Source: Platerodrilus igneus (taxonomy: Eukaryota > Arthropoda > Insecta > Coleoptera > Lycidae). From it: DNA of 64,000 bases. Location: NCBI GenBank assembly GCA_036346225.1, contig JARFIW010000108.1, positions 3,782,001 through 3,846,000 of the forward strand. Reading direction: 5' to 3'. Below are positions 6,836 through 64,000 of the stretch, in pieces. The position numbers and the translations under genes are program-made. The notes beneath the pieces were generated by a model. It made no database searches. It was given only the letters and a program-made list of their open reading frames with translations, and was not told the origin of the DNA. The first letter of the stretch is position 1, and each line of letters begins with the position of its first letter.

Positions 6836-7450
6836 TTAAAAATTCAAAAATAATATAAATTGGTAATGATAGGACACATGTATATGGATTAGGAATATAT
6901 ATTGCATTTTGAGAAATTTAACATTATTGTGTATAAGATTGTGGTATATGCGTGTAAAATGTTCACGATCGCTTTTAAAATTTATGCTATTGATTTCTCT
7001 TTGGTTGTGAATTATTTCCAGCGTGTTTCGTTTGGTATCTTCTCTTTCCATGTCAATTATACTAGCGTTTTCAAAGTCGAATGTATGAATTTCATTTAGT
7101 GCGTAGTTAGTGAGTGCTGTATCTCTTTTATGCGTTCGAACGGAGTATTTATGTTCATAAATTCTTTTTTCGAGATATTGTTTTGTATTAACGATATATG
7201 AGCTATCACATCCTGTACAGTCTATTTTGTATACACAATGGGTTTTATTTTTATAGGAGTAGGTAGCTTGAATTTTGTAAATAGGGCGTTAATTACTATT
7301 ATTGGGTTTATAAACTAATTTTATATTATACTGTTTTAAACAATTTTGGATTTTGTGTGATAGCTGTTTATATTATTTTATGCTTGCGTAATTAGTTTCT
7401 TGTCCTGTTTGTTGTTATTTTTTATCCTTGGTTTATTATATATTAAATGT
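6836..7450 (-). pseudogene. Penelope-like element: GIY-YIG endonuclease relic
   Basis: Read on the minus strand from about 7,260 downward, one frame gives 'CVYKIDCTGCDSSYI', 'NTKQYLEKRIYEHKYSV' and 'NASIIDMEREDTKRNTLEII', then 'QREINSINF' and a terminal 'IYHNLI'. This is the order and spacing of the C-terminal GIY-YIG endonuclease of Penelope-like elements (CxxC, YIGxT, R, EH and E-I motifs). The G of YIG is replaced by V, so the active site is compromised. Upstream (7,300-7,450) a linker-like fragment ('CLKQYNIKLVYKP') is readable with stops. No RT domain is visible. The fragment shows that autonomous PLEs have been active in this genome, relevant to the hammerhead-bearing copies at 51.4, 57.5, 60.2 and 63.7 kb. 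Confidence 0.72.
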
Positions 7451-30178: not shown

Positions 30179-35744
<5,566 letters not shown>

Positions 35745-40021: not shown

Positions 40022-40314
40022 GAATGGACCTGCACCTTGTCGAAGTTCTAAATTACTAGAACAGGTGAAATGGCTTGCGTGTTCTAATGAGCTAAAGAGC
40101 CAAACTACAGGTCCAACCAAAGTAGTAGGGTCGTTAGTGAGGAACCAGACTAAAACAGGTCCCCGAAAGAGGGCAGCGGCTCTTTCGGTACTTAGATTGG
40201 CAGAGACCATAGGGGTCGGTATGGCAGTCTAAGACACACTACCGCGATGTGGAAGGCAACGGGAAACCACCACATTATCTCCCAAGTACACAGCGTACTT
40301 AAATTGTTACAAAC
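40022..40314 (+). other. RTE 5' UTR with strong predicted RNA structure
   Basis: The first bases GGACCTG (40,026-40,032) are complementary to CAGGTCC at 40,108-40,114 and again at 40,156-40,162. Inside are nested helices CACCT/AGGTG and GTTCTA/TAGAAC. A 9-bp hairpin CCGAAAGAG/CTCTTTCGG lies at 40,163-40,188. The same bases are kept in copy 2 (54,024-54,316). Such elements often carry a self-cleaving HDV-like ribozyme at the 5' end; I could not thread the full HDV fold. Confidence 0.5.
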
Positions 40315-41487
40315 ATGATGGCATTCTCTGGGATAAAAGATTCCGGAGTTAAAATAGTCCCCCATTCGGATCTCCGGGAGGGGACTACTTCGAAGGATGC
40401 GATTAGAAAGTTAAAAATAAGAGTCGGGAACATTCTGCGAGTCGGAGCGTGGAATGTTAGAAGTATGAAGCAAGTGGGTAAGCTAGAGAACCTAAAAATC
40501 GAAATGAATAGGTTATCACTAGACATAGTAGGGATCAGCGAAGTTCGGTGGCCTGAGGCGGGGGATTTTTGGAGTGGAGACTTCAGGGTAATTCATACAG
40601 CAGCAGAGGAAGGAAATTTGGGTGTGGGGATAGTTATGCGGAAAAAGATAGGATACTGTGTAGAAAATTACTTACAAAAGAATAAAAGAGTACTCATGGT
40701 TAGATTAGAATCTAAACCGGTAAACACAGTAATAATTCAAGTATACATGCCCACCTCTAGCTACAGTAACGAAGAGGTAGAAGCGATCTACAAAGATATC
40801 GAAGACATATTAAGACACGTAAAAGGACATGAAAATTTAATAATTATGGGGGATTTTAATGCAGTGGTAGGTGAGGGTAGGGAAGGAGCGGTAGTAGGTT
40901 TATTTGGTTTAAGCACGAGAAACGACAGGAGAAATAGGCTGGTAGAATTTTGCGACAAGAACAATTTAATCATCACAAACACATTATTTCAACATCATGC
41001 TAGAAGGCGATATACGTGGAAGATGCCAGGAGATATAGGAAGATATCAAATAGATTACATTCTTGTTAGACAACGGTTTAGGAATCAAGTAAAAGACTGT
41101 AGAAGCTACCCAGAAGCAGATATAGATACTGACCACAACATCGTAATTATGAAGGCCGCACTTAAATTTAAAAATCTGAAAAAAAGGAACGGAAAAAGGC
41201 ACTTGGACTTAGAGAAACTAAAAGATAAAGATATTCAAGAAAGATTCGAAAAAAAGTCAAATGAATTGCTGAATGATATCGGGAAAATATCTGATACTAA
41301 GGAAGTAGAAACAGAATGGAATAACATTAAATCCAGCCTAGACATGGCGGCCAGAGATATTCTGGGGTATACACAAAAAGAAAATAAGAAACCATGGATA
41401 ACAAAGGATATCCTGAATTTAATAGAAGAAAGACGAAAATACAAAAATAAATCAGACGAAACAGGAAACAGAGATACAAAACCATAA
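40315..41487 (+). CDS. RTE endonuclease domain reading frame (390 aa), copy 1
   Basis: Open from ATG 40,315. APE-type endonuclease motifs: GAWNVRS (residues 44-50), ISEVRWPEAG with the metal-binding Glu, MGDFN (178-182), 'QIDYILVRQRF' and DTDHN (271-275, catalytic Asp-His). The domain nicks the target and starts target-primed reverse transcription. The frame should run on into the RT, but a one-base loss near 41,466 ends it early; copy 2 keeps that base yet has a stop a few codons later. Start choice: the first ATG after the structured leader; a second ATG follows directly (MM). Confidence 0.8.
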   Translation: MMAFSGIKDSGVKIVPHSDLREGTTSKDAIRKLKIRVGNILRVGAWNVRSMKQVGKLENLKIEMNRLSLDIVGISEVRWPEAGDFWSGDFRVIHTAAEEGNLGVGIVMRKKIGYCVENYLQKNKRVLMVRLESKPVNTVIIQVYMPTSSYSNEEVEAIYKDIEDILRHVKGHENLIIMGDFNAVVGEGREGAVVGLFGLSTRNDRRNRLVEFCDKNNLIITNTLFQHHARRRYTWKMPGDIGRYQIDYILVRQRFRNQVKDCRSYPEADIDTDHNIVIMKAALKFKNLKKRNGKRHLDLEKLKDKDIQERFEKKSNELLNDIGKISDTKEVETEWNNIKSSLDMAARDILGYTQKENKKPWITKDILNLIEERRKYKNKSDETGNRDTKP

Positions 41488-41564
41488 AATGGGAAATTAT
41501 TCGAAAATGCAGGAAAGCTAAAGAACAATGGATTGATGAAAAGTGCAAAGAGGTACAAACAAAG

Positions 41565-43309
41565 ATGGAAATAGGAAAGACAGACGAAGCATACAAATTA
41601 ATTAGAATGAATTTTAGGGATATAAAACCGTATAGCAAAAATATAAGGGACGCACAAGGAAACGTCATCATACAAAACGTAGAGAAAGTGGGTAGATGGC
41701 AAGAATATATAGGGAATTTATATGCAGTAGAGGAACTAACTGCATTAGAACAGGAATCAGACATTGAAAATGATGACTTGGGATATCCTATACTTAGAGA
41801 CGAGTTTGAATTAGCATTAAAGAGTTTGAATTAGCATTAAAGAGTCTGAAAAATGGTAAGGCGCCGGGTACAGATAAGGTGCAAGCAGAAACTCTAAAAG
41901 CAGCTGGACAAGCGGTAACAGAACGTCTCTTCCAACTTGTAAGCTATATGTGTGAGACAGGCGAGATACCCAAAGATTTCAAACGTAGCATCATAGTAAC
42001 TATACCAAAAAAGAAAGGCGCGGATAGATGTGAAAATTTTCGAACAATAAGTTTGACAGCACACGTGTCAAAAATATTAACTAGAATTGTGCAAAGACGA
42101 ATGGAAAAACGGGCAGAAGAAATACTAGGAGAACACCAATTTGGATTTAGGCGAAACAGGGGAACACGGGAGGCTATTTTAGCTCTGAGAGTGATAATGG
42201 AGAAAACAATAGAAAAAGGGGAAAGCGTGTATATAGGGTTTGTAGATCTGGAAAAAACATTCGACGAAGTAAAATGGAAAAAAATGTTTGATATACTCAA
42301 AAAGATTGGAATGAGTTATAGGGATAGACGAATAGTACATAGCTTATACAAAGAGCAAACAGCAGTAATAGAATTAGAGCAGGAACATAGAGAAGTAAAC
42401 ATTAGGAAAGGAGTGAGACAGGGATGTGCCCTATCCGCATTGATTTTTAACTTGTACATAGAAGAGGCAATGAATACTGTCAAATGCAGGAAGACATTTG
42501 GAATTACTATGCAGGGACAAAAAATTGATATGCTTAGATTTGCAGATGATATAGCGGTATTAGCGTCTAGCAAGGAAGAGTTAGAAGCTGCTCTTAATGA
42601 AATGGAAACGGTTCTAACAGAGAGATACGGTATTAAAATTAACAAAACTAAAACTAAAGTTTTAGTATGCAAAGGTGGGGAAAATAAATCAAAAACAAGA
42701 ATACAAGTATGTAACACGAACTTACAAGAGGTTAAGGATTTCTGCTACCTAGGAAGCCAAATAACGCAAGATGGGAAAAGCACAAAAGATATAAAACAAA
42801 GATTAGCACAAGGTGGTGCTACATTTAACAAGAAAAAGCAACTACTGTGCTCAAAGACCACAAACATAGAAACAAGGAAAAGATTGCTTAAAACATATGT
42901 GTGGAGCACAGCACTGTACGGCTGTGAAGCCTGGACAGTAGGAGAAGCGGACAAGAAAAAGGTAGAAGCCTTTGAAATGTGGTGCTACAGACGTATGATG
43001 AAGATATCATGGACAGACAAAGTTAAGAACGAAGAGGTACTAAAAATGGCAGGGGAAGAAAGAAATATGTGGAAAACGGTAAAAAATAGGAGAGATAGGA
43101 TGATAGGCCACATACTACGGCATGAGGGAATAGTACGGAATATATTAGAAGCAGAGATAGGAAAAAAGAGAAGAAGAGGCAGACCTAGGTTAGACTACTG
43201 CACACAGATAGTAAAAGATGTAGGCTGTAGGGGGTTTAGGGAGATGTGTAGGCTAGCCCAGGATAGAAATCAATGGAGGTACGCATCCAACCAATCCCAA
43301 GATGGATAA
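41565..43309 (+). pseudogene. RTE reverse transcriptase and C-terminal domain, copy 1, frameshifted
   Basis: Frame 41,565-41,834 covers the linker before RT. A 20-bp tandem duplication (41,802-41,821 and 41,822-41,841) shifts the frame, after which 41,879-43,309 is open for 476 codons. RT motifs there: 'FRTISLTAHVSKI', 'FGFRRNRGTREAI', 'FVDLEKTFDEV' (first Asp at residue 123), RQGCAL (180-185) and RFADD (220-224). The C-terminal part has 'ISWTDKVKNEEVL' and 'GKKRRRGRPRLDY', probably nucleic-acid binding. The RT part itself looks intact in this copy; only the join to the endonuclease is broken. Confidence 0.85.
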
Positions 43310-44366
43310 ACTAATGACGAAAAGATAACTGTGCTTAAACATGATGTTTATTATAAGTAACTACAAGAATTGGTTGGGCAATATTCTCGAATAATGTTAA
43401 GTGTGTGAAAGGATTTACTGGAAAACCATTATTTCGGCAAATGTCTAAATGTTGGGGGATCTTGGTAGCCACAGGTTGCTTAACCTCCTTAACTGAATCC
43501 CGATAAAATAAGGCATAAAATAAGAAAACAATAGAAGGGGAACGAGCTGAATACACATGCTGTGTAAGAATTTCAGGGAACGATGTAGGCTAGCTCAGAA
43601 TATAAATAAGTGCAGGCACGTGTCCAACCAGTTTTGAGACGGAAAACCTAATGACGAAAAAATAAGCGCAGATAAATCTGATGATTAGTATAAACAACTA
43701 GTTGTTGGTTGCGAAATATCTCCAACTAATGTTGGCTGTGCGAAAAGATAAATTGGAAAATATATTAAATCGTTAAATGGTTAAGTGTTGGGGGAACTTG
43801 GCAGCCACAGGTTGCTTACCTCCCTTCACAACCACTAAAGGTCGGAAAAATAGGGCGTATAACTGTAAAACAATAGAAGGTGATCGAACTGCATCTAACA
43901 AGAAAGAACAGCGCCTATGAGGAAAGGCAACAAACATAGAACAAGAAGAAAATTGTTGAAAGCATAGGTGTGGAGCAAACCACAATATGCCTATGAAATA
44001 CGGGCAGTCTGAAACGCAGACAGACAAACGGTAGCAGCCTTTTGAAATGCTGTGCTTCAGATGTATGAGGACGATAGCATGGACACACAAAGATAATAAC
44101 AAATAAGTTATAGAAATAGTAGGGGAACAAGGATATCTGGGGAAAAAGAAAAATAGAAGGGCGGAAAACGTTCTAAGACATTTTGGAGAATAGTATGGGA
44201 TATATTACAAGCAGAGATAGGAAAAAAGAGGTAGATGTAGACCTAGATGAGATAGTTATAGATGCAAACTGTGCAAATTTCAGGGAAATCTGTAGGTTAG
44301 TTCAGAATAAGAAACAATGATGGTACGCGTCTAACCAGTTCTAGGACTGAAGACCTAATGATGATG
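43310..44366 (+). pseudogene. Fossil 3' tail of RTE copy 1 (older RTE 3' ends)
   Basis: After the stop the element contains two more degenerate 3' ends. 43,566-43,650 repeats the last codons and first 3' bases ('tttcagggaacgatgtaggc', 'ccaaccagttttgag'). 43,950-44,340 is a degraded copy of about 400 bp of the C-terminal coding region ('gtgtggagcaaa', 'agcagagataggaaaaaaga', 'tgtaggttagttcagaata'). Both are also in copy 2, so they were part of the parent element. Confidence 0.8.
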
Positions 44367-44375
44367 AGTGTGAAC

Positions 44376-47099
44376 GACTGCCTGATCTTTCGCATATTGG
44401 GACACATTCAATATTCAAATATGCAAAAAAAACAGTCAAATATTCACACTTAAAATACGTAATAATAAATATCTGTTATTTTTTCATAAAGAGAATGTGA
44501 TCGCTGAACCACTTCTAATATTTGTCTCGATTTATCAAAAAATAGGAAATTGTTACAAAATCTGCAAACAGGTATCAGAGGTCTAAATATGTCGAGAATT
44601 ATAAGCTAAATTCGTTAATCAATTTACTGCGTAGGGACTATTTACTACAAAACCTTGCGTTTCAATTAAAACGTTATCGACCAAAAAATTATTAAACGAA
44701 ACTTTTTCCATTATAAAGTTTACGCATAATAACCTTTGCTTTATTATAAGTAGCATAACGCCAACGTTACGTAAAAACCTTTATAACTTCAGGCTTTGAC
44801 TTGTGAAAGCGGCAGCACCTGTTTGTTCCAGAGCTTAATACGAAAAACTTGTAAGTATAAAATTTCTTTACCAATTTATAGAAGCTTACACCGAGAAAAA
44901 GCTCCGGGTGTTTATTATGGTACAATCAAAAAGTTATTCGAACTAAACCTCAAGTATCAAAGACGCGTTAAAGATAGACAATCGATTGGAAAAATAAAAG
45001 GCATGCGTGGGAAATATAAATTTCAGTATCATATGAATTTTCGTCACGTAGCGCAAACGTCCAATATTTGTAGAACACGTTCCTTAATCTTCCTCAGTAT
45101 TAAATAAGGAATTCAGAGAACACGAGCTAAAAAAATTAAGAATAACAATTGGGTTGGTTCTGTAGAAGAATGATCGTAGACCGTTTTCACTATGCATCAT
45201 GCATAAATACAGGGTTACCAAGCGGTCTAAAACAGAAAGAGGTTAAGTAACTCATCTAACAGTCAGGTGCGTGATGTGGCGTCTAATATCAACATTTTCT
45301 TAAAAATTTGACTTTACCAAGGGCCCATAAAGTATTTCAATTTTTTCGTTTAAGGCATAGAGTATATACGATGTCCCAACACCCTACAACGACTAAAAGG
45401 AATGCAACAGTAACGGATCTAAGGTCATACGCATATCAATGACCTTGGACCGATGACGTTGCCACTAAGTGCTGTTTTCAAGACGAATAGCTGACATCGC
45501 TCTTGTTTGTGACACTGTAATTCTGCTGATATTCATCAAGGTTTGTTTCTTTAGCAAGATACGATCAGAAAAACGCTTCGCATATCTGAAACTCGTTAGC
45601 TCTTAAAGGCGGGTCTTGAAATTGTGCGAATGGCTACCAAACAACCCAAATCAACAACAGAATGAGAAAAACTTGGTTGTAAAGCCAAACGAAATCGGGA
45701 AACTCCAACCCCACAAAATCTCGAATAAGCTCACGTCTACAGGGACCTTATTGCGCCTTCCTGGTCTCACCAAATTTTATTTCAATATTTAGATTTGGGG
45801 GATTTTTAAATCCAGCATGGAAAAGCTTTATTTCCATCATTATTGTAAGTTTCTACGTGTAAGTTTCACGTATATAGCTAAAGGAATGTAGATGTGGTTA
45901 ACGCAGTGGCCGTGAGAAACGTTGAATGGTGGGGTTACTACAGCTCGCAGGAGCGATGTATGTTAAAGCAGAGGACTTTATTATTGGCGATCAAAGACAA
46001 CGGACGAGTGTGCGGTTAGTTCGGCGAAGTAATGCCATCTTATCTCCGTATCTTCCCTATTACCTAAAACAAACTAAGTTGTGCTCCGCTACAGCGTAGG
46101 TACTTCACTTCGCTGAGCAAAATTGGAAAACACTGAAAAAAAACCTCCGGAGACGAACCTCACTCGAAAAGCAGGATGAACTAAGTTGTGCTCCGCCACA
46201 GCGTAGGTACTTCACTTCGTTGAGTAAAATTGGAAAACACTGAAAAGAAACTCCCGCAGACGAAAATGACTCGAAAAGCAGGATGCGGTCTTGATTTCCA
46301 GTGAAAACCAGGTAATCCACTGGCTTGTGGACTATACTCGTGACGGTAACCCATGCAGCCAAATTCGAGTACGTACCAATTACGACCAGGGCTAGACATG
46401 GTTTGCGACGCGAGGAAAATTAAATATACCTAAATTTACATTTTTATAACAACATTCTCTATTATATCCAGTCAAACAGTTAATCTTGAGAAATATATAC
46501 TCTCATCAAGCTAGATTACGATTCAATTTAAGTTACGTTACAGTGATTATGTAAAGTACAAGTGCTGCGTAACCAAACCTCAAACTGTTAAATAGTATTC
46601 TACTACAAACTGTCAAATAAACCGACTACAACCAGAACGAAGAGCTAATTAACAAAAACTGACGATAAGACCATGGAACGGAACGCCACGGCAGGCATTT
46701 ACTTTCCCGAGATCTAGATTGGTGTAACAGTTCCAGTTGTTATCTAGGTGACAGGTTTAGGACCGGATTGTACTGATACGCTACAATACGACAATTACTA
46801 AACACGAGAGTTAATAACCACCACAACGTAGAGATTTGAAGTATATTAAAAATATCATAGAGTGAAGTACGATGAAGCACATGTTTTATTTTAAACGTAG
46901 CAAGTTAAACAAAATAATCCTTATCGAGTCGTTAGACACATAAATCAAAAACCTATAAAAACTGATATTCAATTAAATTAAATTGGCAGTAAATCATTTG
47001 CAGGTGTTAGAGCGATAACAAACAACTCTTAATTATATGATTTAGTTAATTGCAGGTGTTAGAGCACTAACATACGCCTCATAATTACAAAATTTTATT
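44376..47099. repeat. Unit Q resumed: copy of 32,430-34,884
   Basis: Collinear with unit P at high identity; includes an extra 60-bp duplication at 46,140-46,245 ('ttgtgctccgc' twice) and about 150 bp (46,830-47,040) lacking in P but present in R (53,640-53,860). A 103-codon frame (44,796-45,107) exists only because of single-base differences from P and R, so it is not counted as a gene. Confidence 0.75.
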
Positions 47100-47945
47100 G
47101 TTTATTATATTTATTTATTATTTATTATTCATTATTCATTATTCATTATTCATTATTCATTATTCATTATTCATTATTCATTATTCATTATTGATTATTC
47201 ATTATTGATTATTCATTATTCATTATTCATTATTCATTATTCATTATTCATTATTCATTGTTCATTGTTCATTGTTCATTGTTCATTATTCATTATTCAT
47301 TATTCATTATTCCTTATTCATTATTCATTATTCATTAGTCATTATTCATTATTCATTATTTACTGATTATCGTTTATCTTTTATAGTTTATCGTCTTTCG
47401 TCTATCGTGTATTCTACCGTCTATCGCCTATCGTCTTTGGTCAATCGTCTTTCGTCTATCGTCTACCGTCTACCGTTTATTATCTATTGTTTACCGTCTA
47501 TCGTTTATCGTCTGTCGTCTGTCGTCTGTCGTCTGTCGTCTGTCGTCTGTCGTCTGTCGTCTGTCGTCTGTCGTCTGTCGTCTGTCGTCTGTCGTCTGTC
47601 GTCTGTCGTCTGTCGTCTGTCGTCTATCGTCTATCGTCTATCGTCTATCGTCTATCGTCTATCGTTTATCGTTTATCGTTTATCGTTTATCGTTTATCGT
47701 TTATCGTTTATCGTTTATCGTTTATCGTTTATCGTTTATCGTTTATCGTTTATCGTTTATCGTTTATCGTTTATCGTTTATCGTTTATCATTTATCATTT
47801 ATCATTTATCATTTATCATTTATCATTTATCATTTATCATTTATCATTTATCATTTATCATTTATCATTTATCATTTATCATTTATCATTTATCATTTAT
47901 CATTTATTATTTATTATTTATTTATTATTTTTTATATTATTTATT
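47100..47945. repeat. Heptanucleotide array in unit Q with stepwise blocks
   Basis: About 845 bp of 7-base repeats. ATTCATT-type units (47,126-47,360, with a short GTTCATT block), an irregular zone (47,360-47,508), then pure blocks counted directly: 16 x CGTCTGT (47,509-47,620), 6 x CGTCTAT (47,621-47,662), 18 x CGTTTAT (47,663-47,788), 17 x CATTTAT (47,789-47,907), then TATTTAT. Each block differs from the one before by one base. Long open frames are a by-product. Confidence 0.96.

Positions 47946-51359: not shown

Positions 51360-51399
<40 letters not shown>
51360..51399. repeat. (TA)n microsatellite, left of PLE
   Basis: About 40 bases of alternating TA; a second tract lies at 51,768-51,811, so the PLE fragment between them seems to have landed in one TA tract or to be bounded by TA-rich ends. 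Confidence 0.95.
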
Positions 51400-51403
<4 letters not shown>

Positions 51404-51763
51404 CCCAACGTACTTTTATAGTCATTTTCAAAATTTATTATGTAGTTTCGGTTCAATTCTGTACTTCCACACTTTAGTAGTGTTGGTGTTTTATCACCTG
51501 ATGGCGGTTTTATTTACTTTTGCCATAGTACAGTGATTGTTTCGAAATTATATCATTATAATAGCTTCGATTACTTCATAGGGTTCTTGGGAACAGTTCA
51601 CTCTGATGAGGCTAACAAGCCGAAACCATTGGTCAGTGGATGTTTCCTCCCCTATGAATTAATAAAGCTAATGTTTTGTTAATGGCTATATAACTACCAG
51701 CCCGATTTGTATTTGTCAATGGCTCTTATTATTTTCATAAGAGTTTGTTTACAGATACATCTT

Positions 51764-51767
<4 letters not shown>
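51400..51767 (+). mobile_element. Short Penelope-like element fragment with hammerhead ribozyme
   Basis: 368 bp with no coding capacity, homologous in order to the reverse complements of 60,200-60,570 and 63,690-64,000. Shared blocks: 'tagtgttggtgtttt', 'cctgatg.cggtttt', 'tgatgaggc', 'ccgaaacc', 'ttttgttaatggctat' and 'cgatttgtat'. Hammerhead motifs in terminal repeats are a known property of PLEs and derived non-autonomous elements. The copy is bounded by TA tracts. Confidence 0.7.
51596..51641 (+). ncRNA. Hammerhead ribozyme, type I, complete core
   Basis: All conserved parts are present in order. Stem I strand GTTCACT (51,596-51,602); CTGATGA (51,603-51,609); stem II GGCT/AGCC with loop AACA (51,610-51,621); GAAA (51,622-51,625); stem III ACC/GGT with loop ATT (51,625-51,633); cleavage base C (51,634) in a GTC triplet; stem I return AGTGGAT (51,635-51,641), pairing over 7 bp with two G-U wobbles. 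Predicted self-cleavage between 51,634 and 51,635 in the plus-strand RNA. Established for PLE terminal repeats; activity here is predicted, not shown. Confidence 0.88.

Positions 51768-51811
<44 letters not shown>
51768..51811. repeat. (TA)n microsatellite, right of PLE
   Basis: About 44 bases of alternating TA. Confidence 0.95.
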
Positions 51812-54023: not shown

Positions 54024-54316
54024 GAATGGACCTGCACCTTGCCGAAGTTCTAAATTACTAGAACAGGTGAAATGGCTTGCGTGTTCTAATGAGCTAAAGA
54101 GCCAAACTACAGGTCCAACCAAAGTAGTAGGGTCGTTAGTGAGGAACCAGACTAAAACAGGTCCCCGAAAGAGGGCAGCGGCTCTTTCGGTACTTAGATT
54201 GGCAGAGACCATAGGGGTCGGTATGGCAGTTTAAGACACACTACCGCGATGTGGAAGGCAACGGGAAACCACTACATTATCTCCCAAGTACACAGCGTAC
54301 TTAAATTGTAACAAAC

Positions 54317-55498
54317 ATGATGGCATTCTCTGGGGTAAAAGATTTCGGAGTTAAAATAGTCCCCCATTCGGATCTCCGGGAGGGGGGGACTACTTCGGAG
54401 GATGCGATCGGAAAGTTAAAAATAAGAGTCGGGAACATTCTGCGAGTCGGAGCGTGGAATGTTAGAAGTATGAAGCAAGTAGGTAAGCTAGAGAACCTAA
54501 AAATCGAAATGAATAGGTTATCACTAGACATAGTAGGGATCAGCGAAGTTCGGTGGCCAGAGGCGGGGGATTTTTGGAGTGGAGACTTCAGGGTAATTCA
54601 TACAGGAGCAGAGGAAGGAAATTTGGGTGTGGGGATAGTTATGCGGAAAAAGATAGGATACTGTGTAGAAAATTACTTACAAAAGAACGAAAGAGTACTC
54701 ATGGTTAGATTAGAATCTAAACCGGTAAACACAGTAATAATACAAGTATACATGCCCACCTCTAGCTACAGTGACGAAGAGGTAGAAGCCATCTACAAAG
54801 ATATCGAAGACATATTAAGATACGTAAAAGGACATGAAAATTTAATAATTACGGGGGATTTTAATGCTGTGGTAGGTGAGGGTAGGGAAGGAGCGGTAGT
54901 AGGTTTATTTGGTTTAGGCACGAGAAACGACAGGGGAAATAGGCTGGTAGAATTTTGCGACAAGAACAATTTAATCATCACAAACACATTATTTCAACAT
55001 CATGCTAGAAGACGATATGCGTGGAAGATGCCAGGAGACATAGGACGATATCAAATAGATTACATTATTGTTAGACAACGGTTTAGGAATCAAGTAAAAG
55101 ACTGTAGAAGCTACCCAGAAGCAGATATAGATACTGACCACAACATCGTAATTATGAAGGCCGCACTTAAATTTAAAAATCTGAAAAAAAGGAACGGAAA
55201 AAGGCACTTGGACTTAGAGAAACTAAAAGATAAAGATATTCAAGTAAGATTCGAAAAAAAGTCAAATGAATTGCTAAATGATATCGGGAAAATATCTGAA
55301 ACTAAGGAAGTAGAAACAGAATGGAATAACATTAAATCCAGCCTAGACATGGCGGCCAGAGATATTTTGGGGTATACACAAAAAGAAAATAAGAAACCAT
55401 GGATAACAAAGGATATCGTGAATTTAATAGAAGAAAGACGAAAATACAAAAATAAATCAGACGAAACAGGAAAACAGAGATACAAAGCCATAAAATGA
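54317..55498 (+). CDS. RTE endonuclease domain reading frame (393 aa), copy 2
   Basis: Same domain as copy 1 with GAWNVRS, ISEVRWPEAG, GDFN (preceded by T instead of M) and DTDHN. Three extra codons lie near residue 23 from a G-run expansion. It ends at a TGA that replaces a Trp codon three codons past the point where copy 1 is frameshifted. Confidence 0.8.
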   Translation: MMAFSGVKDFGVKIVPHSDLREGGTTSEDAIGKLKIRVGNILRVGAWNVRSMKQVGKLENLKIEMNRLSLDIVGISEVRWPEAGDFWSGDFRVIHTGAEEGNLGVGIVMRKKIGYCVENYLQKNERVLMVRLESKPVNTVIIQVYMPTSSYSDEEVEAIYKDIEDILRYVKGHENLIITGDFNAVVGEGREGAVVGLFGLGTRNDRGNRLVEFCDKNNLIITNTLFQHHARRRYAWKMPGDIGRYQIDYIIVRQRFRNQVKDCRSYPEADIDTDHNIVIMKAALKFKNLKKRNGKRHLDLEKLKDKDIQVRFEKKSNELLNDIGKISETKEVETEWNNIKSSLDMAARDILGYTQKENKKPWITKDIVNLIEERRKYKNKSDETGKQRYKAIK

Positions 55499-55571
55499 GA
55501 AAATAATTGGAAAATGCAGGAAAGCTAAAGAACAATGGATTGATGAAAAGTGCAAAGAAGTACAAACTAAG

Positions 55572-57282
55572 ATGGAAATAGGAAAGACAGATGAAGCATA
55601 CAAATTAATTAGAATGAATTTTAGGGATATAAAACCGTATAGCAAAAATATAAGGGACGCACAAGGAAACGTCATTATAGAAAACGTAGAGAAAGTGAGT
55701 AGATGGCAAGAATATATAGGGAATTTATATGCAGGAGAGGAACTAACTGCATTAGAACAGGAATCAGACATTGAAAATGATGACTTGGGATATCCTATAC
55801 TTCGAGACGAGTTTGAATTAGCATTAAAGAGTCTGAAAAATGGTAAGGCGCCGGGTACAGATAAGGTCAAGCAGAAACTCTAAAAGCCGCTGGACAAGCA
55901 GTAACAGAACGCCTCTTCCAACTTGTAAGCTATATGTATGAGACAGGCGAGATACCCAAAGATTTCAAACGTAGCATCATAGTAACTATACCAAAAAAGA
56001 AAGGCGCAGATAGATGTGAAAATTTTCGAACAATAAGTTTGACAGCACACGTGTCAAAAATATTAACTAGAATTGTGCAAAGACGAATGGAAAAACGAGC
56101 TGAAGAAATACTAGGAGACGACCAATTTGGGTTTAGGCGAAACAGGGGAACACGGGAGGCTATTTTAGCTCTGAGAGTGATAATGGAGAAAACAATAGAA
56201 AAAGGGGAAAGCGTGTATATAGGGTTTGTAGATCTGGAAAAAGCATTCGACAATGTAAATTGGAAAAAAATGTTTGAAATATTCAAAAAGATTGGAATGA
56301 GTTATAGGGATAGACGAATAGTACATAGCTTATACAAAGAGCAAACAGCAGTAATAGAATTAGAGCAGGAACGTAGAGAAATAAACATTAGGAAAGGGGT
56401 GAGACAGGGATGTGCCCTATCCCCGTTGATTTTTAACTTGTACATAGAAGACTGTCAAATGCAGGAAGACATTTGGAATTACTATGCAGGGACAAAAAAT
56501 TGATATGCTTAGATTTGCAGATGATATAGCGGTATTAGCGTCTAGCAAGGAAGAGTTAGAAGCCGCTCTTAATGAAATGGAAACGGTTCTAACAGAGAGA
56601 TACGGTATGAAAATTAACAAAACTAAAACTAAAGTTCTAGTTTGCAAAGGTGGGGGAAAATAAATCAAAAACAAGAATACAAGTATTTAACACGAACTTA
56701 CAAGAGGTTAAGGATTTCTGCTACCTAGGAAGCCAAATAACGCAAGATGGGAAAAGCACAAAGATATAAAACAAAGATTAGCACAAGGTCGTGCTACATT
56801 TAACAAGAAAAAGCAACTACTGTGCTCAAAACCACAAACATAGAAACAAGGAAAAGATTGCTTAAAACATATGTGTGGAGCACAGCACTGTACGGCTGTG
56901 AAGCCTGTACAGTAGGAGAAGCGGACAAGAAAAGGTAAAAGCCTTTGAAATGTGGTGTTACAGGCGTATGATGAAGATATCATGGACAGACAAAGTTAAG
57001 AACGAAGAGGTACTAAAAATGGTAGGGGAAGAAAGAAATATGTGGAAAACGGTAAAAAATAGGAGAGATAGGATGATAGGCCACATACTACGGCATGAGG
57101 GAATAGTGCGGAATATTTTAGAAGCAGAGATAGGAAAAAAGAGAAGAAGAGGCAGACCTAGATTAGACTACTGCACACAGATAGTAAAAGATGTAGGCTG
57201 TAGGGGTTTCAGGGAGATGTGTAGGCTAGCCCAGAATAGAAATCGATGGAGGTACGCATCCAACCAATCCCAAGATGGATAA
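55572..57282 (+). pseudogene. RTE reverse transcriptase, copy 2, multiply broken
   Basis: Frames 55,572-55,883, 55,934-56,503 and 56,950-57,282 hold linker, RT palm and C-terminus. Lesions relative to copy 1: one base lost at about 55,868; an 11-base deletion at about 56,450 just before the FADD block, which puts 'LRFADDIAVLA' (56,509 onward) in another frame; single-base indels near 56,650, 56,760 and 56,935. Catalytic residues are kept ('FVDLEKAFDNV', RQGCALSP, FADD). The lesions differ from those of copy 1, so the two decayed independently. Confidence 0.85.
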
Positions 57283-57531
57283 ACTAACGATGAAAAGATA
57301 ACTGTGCTTAAACATGATGATTATTATAAGTAATTACAAGAATTGGTGGGGCAATATTCTCGAATAATGTTAAGTGTGTGAAAGGATTTACTGGAAAACC
57401 ATTATTTCGGCAAATGTCTAAGTGTTGGGGGATCTTGGTAGCCACAAGTTGCTTAACCTCCTTCACTGAATCTCGATAAAATAGGGTATAAAATTAGAAA
57501 ACAATAGAAAGGGAACGAGCTGAATACACAT
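57283..57531 (+). pseudogene. Fossil 3' tail of RTE copy 2, first part
   Basis: Collinear with 43,310-43,555 of copy 1; continues at 58,528-59,295 after the nested insertion. Confidence 0.8.
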
Positions 57532-57840
57532 ACTCTCTGAAAAGAAGAAAACCACCAAAAACGCAAAATCAAAGTAGCTGCTTATATAACCCTACATAAA
57601 AATAACTGAGTTGCAAACGAATCCGTGACTTTCAGTAAACAATGGATTCCATTACTAAAAGAAATAACAAAAGAAATAACAAATGAAAATCAAATGCCCA
57701 CAATATCTAGGTAGCATTGCAAGTTTTTGCTAGGTTTTCCTTGCAATATTAACATGAAATACAGCCTACAGACATGATTTCTATTTATACATAAAATAAC
57801 TAATTACATAAAAATAAGCATATTAACAATCCTTGTAAAA

Positions 57841-59295: not shown

Positions 59296-60199
59296 GAAGC
59301 AATCTATCATTTCAAATAATTTTCAGACAGTGGGGAGAGATCCGTGTTTAAAGTTTAATGAAATCGTGATTTTCCCGCGATCAGAACAAAATCTGATTAG
59401 AATAGACACTGTTTATTTTCGTGATATCGAGGCCTTTTAAATATAAACTGCAAGGGATTTCAGGAGGGGTCTTATGGCTTTTTGCTCTTCCATTTCTTCG
59501 TTGTAAGTACCACACAAAGAGGGTGTTTTAGGGTTGCTATATCCAAAGTACCTTAATTTGGAATTATGCTAAAGAGAAAAATTTAATACATACTTATGGT
59601 ACAATAAAAAAGAGTTATGTTAGGATTCAAAACTGATAGTAAAATAAAATCTGTTTTCGCTATCAGATCATGGAAATACTATCTTGGTAATTATTGAAAG
59701 TATTTTTTATGAGACTTAATTATATAAGATATTTTTATTTGATGTGACAAAGATGAATTTATTTTTGGCGCTTTATGTATGATGGTTAATTATAGTCATA
59801 GATTTTATTCTCTAATACAAGTTTTATTCTGATATCTGATCAGTATAAAATTAGGTACGTACTTTAAAAAAAAGGTGACCTTGTGTCATTTATGCTTGGA
59901 AATGATATAGCGTAAAATATTCAGGAGCAATATGGGAACAGTTGCTATTTAAGTTTTTGATTTTGTTAAACAACTATTTTTCTTGTTTCATATAATTTTC
60001 TTGATTTGAGAGACGTTAAGTAACACTATGAAAAAATTTTTTTTTTTATTTTGTGAGTAAGGATTTTGTTTTGTAAACAACAATTCTAATTTTGAAGATT
60101 ATGGTTTTGTATATAATTTTAAATTTTTGAGAGACTATATTTCTCGATGTTGTTCGTGTATAATCCTGTAAATAAATGATTCAGCATGTACACTCACAG
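59296..60199. other. End of unit R, then AT-rich non-coding DNA
   Basis: 59,296-59,430 equals 47,996-48,104. Beyond that, AT-rich sequence with no recognised gene or repeat. Confidence 0.5.
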
Positions 60200-60570
60200 A
60201 AAATCACAAAAGCAAATTTGCCTATACAAATCGAGCTAATATTTGCATAGCCATTAACAAAATAATAACTTGATTGTTTCATAAGGAGAAGAAACATGCA
60301 TTGTCCGGTTTCGGCCTTTTTGGCCTCATCAGAATGGATTAGTTTCTAACGCTCTTATGAAACAGTCGAAGCAATTATTGATATAAGCTCGAAGGAATCT
60401 TTGTCTGATGGAAGGAGTATAACAAAACCGGCATCAGGGGAAAACACCAACACTAGGTCGTGAAGGTACAAAAGTAGATTCAAAATTAAATCGTAATTTT
60501 ATAAATGGCCATGCAAATACGTTCAGCCATTTGTGATGACAGAACATACTTTTTATCGTAAAAGTACGTA
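60200..60570 (-). mobile_element. PLE fragment, second copy (minus strand)
   Basis: The reverse complement is collinear with 51,400-51,767. Contains the hammerhead-like core at 60,296-60,339. Confidence 0.65.
60296..60339 (-). ncRNA. Hammerhead motif with altered stem III
   Basis: Minus strand: stem I ATCCATT, CTGATGA, stem II GGCC/GGCC with AAAAA loop, GAAA, then CCGGAC, stem I return AATGCAT. Core and stems I and II are kept, but the stem III loop is lost and the triplet is GAC instead of GTC, so cleavage is not expected. Confidence 0.6.
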
Positions 60571-63500: not shown

Positions 63501-63689
63501 GGTGTGTTATTTTACATGGAAATATTATTTTATGTGCTAATGGAATACGTTTATATGTTTATACATGGTAGAAATTAAATATTGGAAAATTTTAATTTTT
63601 CTCCGTTTTTCTTCCCTTTGTGTTTTCGCAGAATTTGGTGCTCAATGAGCTCTCGTGACCTCATTATCACATCTCTGTGTGTGTATCTG
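60571..63689. other. AT-rich non-coding DNA
   Basis: No gene recognised. 61,689-61,712 is a TA microsatellite. 62,300-63,450 shares weak ordered blocks with 7,500-8,700. Confidence 0.4.
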
Positions 63690-64000
63690 TAAAACTTATG
63701 AAAATCAAAAGAGTAAATTTACCTATACAAATCGTTATGCGGATAAGCCATTAACAAAACAATAACTTGATTGTTCATAAAGAGAATAAACAGGTTTTGG
63801 CCTTTTGGGCCTCATCAGAATGAAGTACTTTATAACCCTTATGAAACAATCAAGGCTATAACAATAATAAGCTCGAAATAACCTTTATACAATGGCGAGA
63901 AAAAATAAAACCACCATCAGAGAATAACAGAGATTAGTGAATATACAAAATTAATCAAAATTAAATCGTAATTTCATGGATGGTCATACAAATACCGTAC
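63690..64000 (-). mobile_element. PLE fragment, third copy, running off the window
   Basis: The reverse complement matches 60,200-60,560 closely and 51,400-51,767 more weakly; the window ends inside it. Confidence 0.65.
63785..63826 (-). ncRNA. Decayed hammerhead motif
   Basis: Minus strand CTGATGA, stem II GGCC/GGCC with CAAAA loop, then AAAA where GAAA is required. The core G is lost and stem III/cleavage triplet are not recognisable. Confidence 0.5.

What the first reader, a model, noticed from the sequence alone, without database searches (positions are those of the whole stretch)
51596..51641. Complete hammerhead ribozyme in a short PLE fragment
Every invariant hammerhead position (CUGAUGA, GAAA, GUC triplet) and all three helices are present within 46 bases, with a 7-bp stem I closing both sides. 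Seen directly; the link to PLE terminal repeats is established knowledge. The host fragment has no protein, so RNA self-cleavage may be its only active function.
Basis: partly seen in the sequence, partly recalled or inferred. Interest (0 to 1): 0.85.

Follow-up and report, generated by a model that had tools for sequence, protein, structure and literature searches.

The report
Hammerhead repeat inserted like Penelope elements
The short stretch holds a complete self-cutting RNA motif that belongs to a mobile repeat with over a thousand near-identical copies in this genome, and the way the copies read here are inserted points to the enzymes of Penelope-type jumping genes as what moves them.

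Summary
The hammerhead is real: all core bases and three helices lie at 51596-51641. A motif scan finds it alone in the window, and 0 of 200 random sequences match its stem lengths. No Rfam family reaches its gathering score. Helix III is only 2 bp plus A-U, so it may work best as a dimer.

It is not a decayed ORF-bearing Penelope-like element (PLE) but a 5'-truncated copy of a 511-bp non-coding tandem repeat with one hammerhead per unit (animal-retrozyme-like). The 2.7-Gb genome has 1,187 exact copies of a 40-nt piece of it. In the loci read, copies sit mostly in (TA)n tracts as two head-to-head arms. Of 28 head-to-head insertions with both ends typed, 25 have one arm ending at site 1 and the other at site 2, about 43 nt on; none has two alike. 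A resident autonomous PLE (reverse transcriptase, GIY-YIG nuclease) shows (TA)n targets, two 3' ends 38 nt apart and, by eye, a hammerhead-like motif. This supports PLE-driven mobilisation of animal retrozymes, proposed in print but unproven. The partner PLE was not found; no RNA was measured.

The parts
51360..51399 (.). (TA)20, left flank of the insertion (target tract)
   Evidence: paralogous sites without the insertion in L034 and L041 hold only a short TA-rich stretch here
51399..51773 (+). 375-nt piece of the 511-bp repeat unit ('core'); 5'-truncated single copy, 3' end at site 1
51575..51583 (+). outer extension of stem I, 5' arm (UUCAUAGGG)
   Evidence: (circular fold), helix 1
51590..51594 (+). 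middle extension of stem I, 5' arm (GGAAC)
   Evidence: helix 2
51596..51602 (+). hammerhead stem I, 5' arm (GUUCACU); window copy has a U.G wobble where the family has C-G
51603..51609 (+). hammerhead core CUGAUGA
51610..51621 (+). stem II GGCU-AACA-AGCC
   Evidence: two-sided changes in other copies, helix 4
51622..51634 (+). GAAA, helix III CC-AUU-GG, UC; cleavage after C 51634
51635..51641 (+). hammerhead stem I, 3' arm (AGUGGAU)
51642..51646 (+). middle extension of stem I, 3' arm (GUUUC)
   Evidence: helix 2
51650..51658 (+). outer extension of stem I, 3' arm (CCCUAUGAA)
   Evidence: helix 1
51768..51811 (.). (TA)22, right flank; site-1 3' end ...CTTACTTT|ATATAT
60199..60523 (-). old diverged copy (72%) of the same repeat, hammerhead damaged (U16.1 changed)
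63682..64000 (-). second old diverged copy (68-69%), hammerhead broken (GAAA changed, 3' part deleted)
6836..7288 (-). C-terminal fragment of a different PLE family (GIY-YIG-type nuclease region)
   Evidence: named by eye, no Pfam family at or above its cut-off; 150 scored own-genome matches, itself included, of 24,388 candidates

Best explanation
The site is a single-arm, 5'-truncated copy of a non-autonomous retroelement: a 511-bp, non-coding, tandemly repeating unit with one type I hammerhead per unit (animal-retrozyme-like). Proposed cycle. (1) Multimeric genomic copies are transcribed by read-through. (2) The hammerheads cut each unit, alone or as helix-III dimers, giving 511-nt monomers that may be closed to circles by a host RNA ligase. 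(3) The reverse transcriptase and GIY-YIG nuclease of a resident PLE take the RNA in trans, nick a (TA)n tract on both strands, and start reverse transcription internally at two fixed template sites, site 1 (134 nt after the cleavage site) on one strand and site 2 (about 177 nt) on the other. (4) The two cDNA arms run 5'-ward for a variable distance, through several units if the template is multimeric or circular, and are joined head to head. Shown by sequence: the motif, unit, copy number, and, in the loci read, the (TA)n sites, head-to-head arms, two end sites and their one-of-each use, plus like anatomy in a co-resident autonomous PLE. Inferred: transcription, cleavage, circularisation, and trans use of PLE proteins.
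For: Copies: 40 of 1531 own-genome candidates scored, all 40 full-length at 99-100%, the window copy included; 1,187 exact matches to a 40-nt piece (core to stem I 3' arm, without the 5' arm), reversed-pattern control 0. Of the 100 places listed there, 21 of 23 same-strand neighbour spacings are 504-511 bp, and 14 of 14 opposite-strand neighbours within 1.6 kb are head to head. Anatomy in the 33 loci that hold the other 39 copies, plus the window: 37 element groups, 31 head to head by script, one of these (in L016) likely an artefact of grouping. Of 28 head-to-head insertions with both ends typed, 25 pair site 1 with site 2, 0 pair like with like, 3 pair site 2 with an atypical end; in 24 of the 25 both ends meet a TA run. 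Autonomous PLE in the same genome: Pfam RVT_1 and GIY-YIG on L033 and L037 ORFs; the L033 family has 40 scored copies of its 3' region at 94-100%. In 13 aligned copies, 12 end in (TA)n, at two points 38 nt apart; 2 of 3 pairs fetched (C500, C1209) have one of each. Literature: PAc starts reverse transcription internally at two sites in AT-rich targets on both strands (PMC11167929); a 'tail' at one of the inverted pLTRs is a PLE trait (PMC3846280).
Against: No autonomous PLE sharing sequence with the 511-bp unit was found; the L033 and window-type PLEs share anatomy, not sequence. The L033 motif was read by eye: it departs from the hammerhead core (A3/U8, an extra A), the descriptor did not find it, and Rfam gave no hammerhead match in L066 or L073 at E 1. 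Three copies of the window-type family showed none. In the third PLE pair fetched (C869, L033/L071) both sides carry the longer sequence, but L071 has no TA run there, so its outer end was not reached. The window copy itself lacks the second arm. No RNA data exist here. A tRNA-containing tandem element without a hammerhead has the same kind of arrays and ends, so the hammerhead is not needed for such insertion in general. Letters were fetched only for best-scoring copies, which favours young, intact ones.
Confidence: 0.75

Rival explanations
1. It is a hammerhead-bearing satellite DNA (pDo500-like) spread by unequal exchange and segmental copying, not by retrotransposition.
For: Arrays of about 10 and 18 full cores exist (L016, L021), and pDo500 is an orthopteran hammerhead satellite (PMC2837043, PMC2808323, passages).
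Against: The 100 listed exact matches fall into 63 clusters, 42 of them single (mutated neighbours are not counted). In the loci read, outer ends sit at two fixed points, mostly in (TA)n, arms are head to head, flanks mostly differ, and related flanking repeats without the insertion exist.
Confidence: 0.08
2. It is the solo terminal repeat (pLTR) of an autonomous PLE whose ORF was lost; copies move as by-products of that PLE in cis.
For: Hammerhead, two 3' ends and inverted arms are pLTR traits (PMC3846280, PMC11167929).
Against: A tblastn with the window's PLE nuclease fragment rang in four of the repeat's loci (L027, L033, L037, L039), never between two units (with 33, 63); ORFs between units were not listed systematically. 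Listed exact matches are spaced by one unit, not by a PLE length; an older pair has a 505-bp same-strand spacing (C1566). Only a small part of the copies was inspected.
Confidence: 0.15
3. Tandem arrays come from template jumping by the PLE reverse transcriptase on linear RNAs; the hammerhead is a passenger without a part in mobility.
For: A tRNA-containing tandem element has the same architecture without a hammerhead found; PAc insertion in vitro does not need hammerhead activity; only 9 of 24 aligned old and young copies keep core and triplet.
Against: An intact hammerhead with different, still paired stem II letters sits in a 68% diverged copy (L040), and 77 family-type hammerheads passed a descriptor in the loci held. 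Retrozyme circles are documented in other animals (PMC7229834).
Confidence: 0.35
4. Chance hammerhead match.
For: Low Rfam score; MFE fold differs.
Against: 0 of 200 random sequences, 1,187 genomic copies of the 40-nt piece, pairing far above slid controls.
Confidence: 0.01

Closest known systems
Animal non-LTR retrozymes (Cervera and de la Pena 2020, PMC7229834)
   Same: Short tandem repeats with a type I hammerhead per unit, no ORF, low GC (0.35 here), dimers to long arrays, dispersed, reported for insects too.
   Different: 511-bp unit against 170-400 nt RNAs (150-450 bp repeats); the insertion anatomy (two coupled 3' ends, head-to-head arms, (TA)n) is not described in the passages I read; expression unknown.
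Penelope/Poseidon-type PLEs, e.g. PAc of Anolis (PMC11167929) and Adineta Pen families (PMC3846280)
   Same: Hammerhead upstream of the end (PAc), internal RT start at two sites with a 30-40 nt tail between, inverted arms, AT-rich targets.
   Different: No RT or nuclease ORF in the unit; ends lie 134 and about 177 nt after the cleavage site (L033-type PLE here 85/123, counted by hand; PAc about 85-92, worked out from its text).
PLE-associated minimal hammerheads cleaving as dimers (Cervera and de la Pena 2014; Lunse 2017; neither held, seen only as cited in PMC7761336, otherwise recalled)
   Same: Diminished helix III; the column majority of 24 copies reads GAAACCGGTC, a palindromic helix III without loop (exact in 4 of 24). 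The young family has ACCAUUGGU, which can pair with itself at -8.9 kcal/mol.
   Different: The young family has a 3-nt loop that permits a monomeric helix III.
pDo500 satellite of Dolichopoda cave crickets (PMC2837043, PMC2808323, passages)
   Same: Roughly 500-bp insect repeat (size recalled) with a hammerhead and a proposed extended stem I.
   Different: Described as satellite DNA; no sequence was compared, and no retroelement ends were reported in the passages read.

Membership tests
Hammerhead ribozyme, type I | Invariant core CUGANGA, GAAA, UH cleavage triplet | tested here: met
Hammerhead ribozyme, type I | Three helices, open at stem I, kept by compensatory change | tested here: met
   helices present; compensatory support is moderate, and helix III was left out of the pair count
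Hammerhead ribozyme, type I | Rfam gathering score | tested here: not met
   no hammerhead family at threshold for the window copy or the relatives scanned
Hammerhead ribozyme, type I | Self-cleavage | not testable with these tools
   needs in vitro transcription
Animal non-LTR retrozyme | Tandem repeats with one type I hammerhead per unit, no ORF, GC below 45% | tested here: met
   (GC 0.352; longest open stretch in the tripled unit 101 codons)
Animal non-LTR retrozyme | Unit of about 150-450 bp | tested here: not met
   511 bp; the range is descriptive, and the paper's discussion allows circles of 150 to over 1000 nt
Animal non-LTR retrozyme | Abundant linear and circular monomer RNA | not testable with these tools
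   no RNA data
PLE (autonomous) | ORF with telomerase-like RT and GIY-YIG nuclease in the element | tested here: not met
   the 511-bp unit is too short: longest open stretch 101 codons
PLE insertion machinery | Two internal 3' start sites (tail) and inverted arms in AT-rich target | tested here: met
   compared
PLE insertion machinery | Co-resident autonomous PLE with the same anatomy | tested here: met
   one-of-each seen in 2 of 3 pairs fetched, third not informative
PLE insertion machinery | Autonomous PLE whose terminal repeat shares sequence with the unit | tested here: inconclusive
   not found; only best-scoring copies and about 296 kb were inspected
pDo500 satellite | Sequence identity | not tested
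   no pDo500 sequence was available in the passages read

The most novel reading that the evidence does not exclude
PLE proteins in this genome insert RNA with an obligate asymmetric two-start reaction: one cDNA arm from template site 1, the other from site 2, about 38-55 nt apart, on opposite strands of a (TA)n tract. They do so in trans on unrelated non-coding RNAs: a hammerhead unit (511 bp), a tRNA-containing unit (402 bp) and their own mRNA. This would make PLEs the general driver of animal retrozymes and of a tRNA-based class of tandem elements, with (TA)n tracts as shared landing sites.
Probability: 0.5. Interest if true: 0.8.

Novelty: new member of a known kind. Interest (0 to 1): 0.63.

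Why it matters
A review says that metazoan retrozymes show no conserved motif from which their autonomous partner could be deduced (PMC7761336, passages), and the founding paper names PLEs as a strong candidate (PMC7229834, discussion). The paired, fixed 3' ends and head-to-head arms give such a signature. It can be scanned for in any genome and turns the question into a counting test. The one-of-each rule also constrains how PLEs integrate, a step that PMC11167929 leaves to be validated.

Tried and rejected
Chance motif: rejected. Decayed ORF-bearing PLE around the site: the ORFs of at least 100 aa between 50.3 and 52.5 kb were not recognised by eye as RT or nuclease and not scanned. PLE ORF between the old copies at 60.2 and 63.7 kb: none recognised by eye in 77 ORFs of at least 30 aa overlapping 59.4-64.0 kb. 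GIY-YIG relatives in the protein collection: one candidate, none scored. Hammerhead near the window-type PLE ends: none in L063-L065; the loose scan over all loci held found 77 family-type copies plus two relatives (L040, L047), against 2 hits in 6.4 Mb of random sequence. Equal TA tracts as a target duplication: tract lengths on the two sides are more even than a random split (25 site 1/site 2 insertions plus the window, KS p 0.011) but not correlated, so unresolved. A search with the flanking repeat L028:3040-3191 returned nothing, probably because very common words are skipped. The search for more copies of the L037 PLE end did not complete, so its G3/C8 variant core rests on one copy, read by eye. 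Strict regular expressions for the ends missed many and were replaced by the alignment-based typing. No paper describing (TA)n-targeted, PLE-anatomy hammerhead repeats was noticed in the listings of searches; subscription papers are mostly not held (two look-ups failed).

Full report
Observation. The 46 bases at 51596-51641 hold every invariant hammerhead base and three helices. A descriptor scan of both strands finds only this one; 200 random 64-kb sequences give 3 looser hits and none with comparable stems. Helix III is weak (CC/GG plus A-U, loop AUU). The 9-nt strand ACCAUUGGU can pair with itself at -8.9 kcal/mol, so a dimer is plausible. Rfam gives no match at gathering score and only weak ones below it. 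The local MFE folds computed are not the hammerhead fold.

What it is. Two diverged copies lie in the same window (60199-60523 and 63682-64000, minus strand). The own genome (2.7 Gb) holds at least 40 full-length copies at 99-100%, the window's included (40 of 1531 candidates scored), and 1,187 exact copies of a 40-nt piece running from the core through the 3' arm of stem I, 0 for the reversed pattern. The full unit is 511 bp, GC 0.352, longest open stretch 101 codons. The window copy carries 375 bp of it and one stem-I change (C-G to U.G). In the loci, 55 of 67 copies spanning the hammerhead (both old window copies included) share one sequence over 53 nt; 4 lack the CTGATGAG string.

Insertion anatomy. 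I read the 33 loci that hold the other 39 copies, plus the window. The script forms 37 element groups, 31 of them head to head; one of the 31 (L016, 9098-9464) looks like an artefact of splitting a diverged array. Two outer end points recur: site 1 (...CTTACTTT) and site 2, about 43 nt further. Of 28 head-to-head insertions with both ends typed, 25 carry one of each (14 with site 1 on the left, 11 on the right), none two alike, and 3 carry site 2 with an atypical end (L011, L022, L024). In 24 of the 25 the script finds a TA run at both ends; the exception is L035. Left out of the 28: L010 (one end not in TA), the L016 group, L021 (one end outside the stretch); and, as not head to head, the other L016 groups, L013, L033, the second of L035, and the window. 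The arms' inner junctions show overlaps of -13 to +9 nt (24 junctions). In the first 100 places listed, 14 of 14 opposite-strand neighbours within 1.6 kb are head to head and 21 of 23 same-strand spacings are 504-511 bp. Relatives of the window's flanks in L034 and L041 join left and right flank with only a short TA-rich stretch: paralogous sites without the insertion.

PLE comparison. L033 and L037 carry ORFs with RVT_1 and GIY-YIG. The L033 family has 259 candidates for its 3' region, 40 scored at 94-100%, and open frames of up to 797 codons around the nuclease. Of thirteen copies aligned (L033 and 12 fetched), 12 end in (TA)n, at two points 38 nt apart. Of the three pairs fetched, C500 and C1209 have one of each; in C869 both sides carry the longer sequence, but L071 has no TA run there and its end was not reached. 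Eleven of 13 (not L067, L069) keep TTATGATTAAGG...GAAACGTA, which I read by eye as a hammerhead-like motif with A3/U8 for C3/G8 and an extra A. The descriptor and Rfam (L066, L073) do not see it, and whether it cuts is unknown. By hand count its cut point would lie 85 and 123 nt before the two ends. In PAc the cut is 26 nt into the ORF and RT starts at 111-118 (PMC11167929, main text section read), that is about 85-92 nt apart. A tail on one of the inverted terminal repeats is described for PLEs (PMC3846280, passages).

Mechanism. The best reading is a retrozyme-like RNA taken in trans by PLE proteins. In vitro, PAc cuts and extends both strands and starts internally at two sites, and hammerhead activity is not needed for insertion; that paper saw no difference in start site between the strands. 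The coupling of the two sites seen here suggests one start per strand in each event. The hammerhead would serve upstream, by making monomers or circles as shown for other animal retrozymes (PMC7229834, abstract, passages and discussion). Against an essential role: a 402-bp tRNA-containing tandem element (L011, L012) has head-to-head arms and paired ends (2 of 2 arrays read) with no hammerhead found.

Evolution. Twenty older copies were fetched of the 40 scored. The column majority of the 24-copy alignment reads GAAACCGGTC, a palindromic helix III without loop, as in PLE minimal hammerheads (that comparison is recalled and from PMC7761336 passages). But only 4 of 24 copies have it exactly, 12 keep CTGANGA followed by GAAA, and 9 also a GUH triplet, as expected of dead copies. 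The 68% copy in L040 is intact with changed but paired stem II. Two-sided changes occur in stems I and II (9 of 27 pairs, 20 of 500 shuffles as high; pair types 135 of 500), so the covariation is moderate and related sequences can exceed the shuffles without structure.

Limits. 

Noticed in passing
L011:3994-5933, L012:1658-2793 (partly also L014, L032, L036, L064): A 402-bp tandem element containing a foldable tRNA (ARAGORN, anticodon ggc or ggt, in L011, L012, L064), arms head to head in L011 and L012, outer ends in TA runs at two points about 53 nt apart, one of each in both arrays read; no hammerhead found.
   Followed up: partly
L015, L025, L028, L030, L031, L032, L033, L042, L067: A further repeat (end TTACTCAAATTTGGACCAGGG...) abuts a TA run at most copies seen (exception L030:6415-6519, short run in L042), so TA tracts seem to be landing sites for several families.
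   Followed up: partly
L033:4981-5040 and L066-L077; L037:3025-3060: PLE terminal repeats carry motifs, read by eye, that resemble a hammerhead whose C3-G8 pair is replaced (A-U in one family, G-C in the single L037 copy) with an extra A before stem II; possibly core variants or relics.
   Followed up: partly
26 insertions, window 51360-51811 included: TA tracts on both sides average about 32 nt and are split more evenly than chance; paralogous sites without the insertion have only a short TA stretch. Tract duplication or TA synthesis during insertion is not excluded.
   Followed up: partly
window 6836-7288 (-): C-terminal PLE nuclease fragment, with 24,388 first-look candidates in the own genome; by their coordinates several matches lie head to head (e.g. 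C1438, C1564, C1715).
   Followed up: partly
window 40022-43561 and 54024-57534: Two copies (96%) of a LINE with endonuclease and RVT_1 reverse transcriptase (Pfam on the first copy); further large duplications in the window (e.g. 32429-34245 and 44369-46178, 94%).
   Followed up: no
window 34893-35692 and 47111-47907: Long 7-bp tandem arrays (TTTATTG, ATTCATC, TTATTCA, TTATCGT) within segments related to each other.
   Followed up: no
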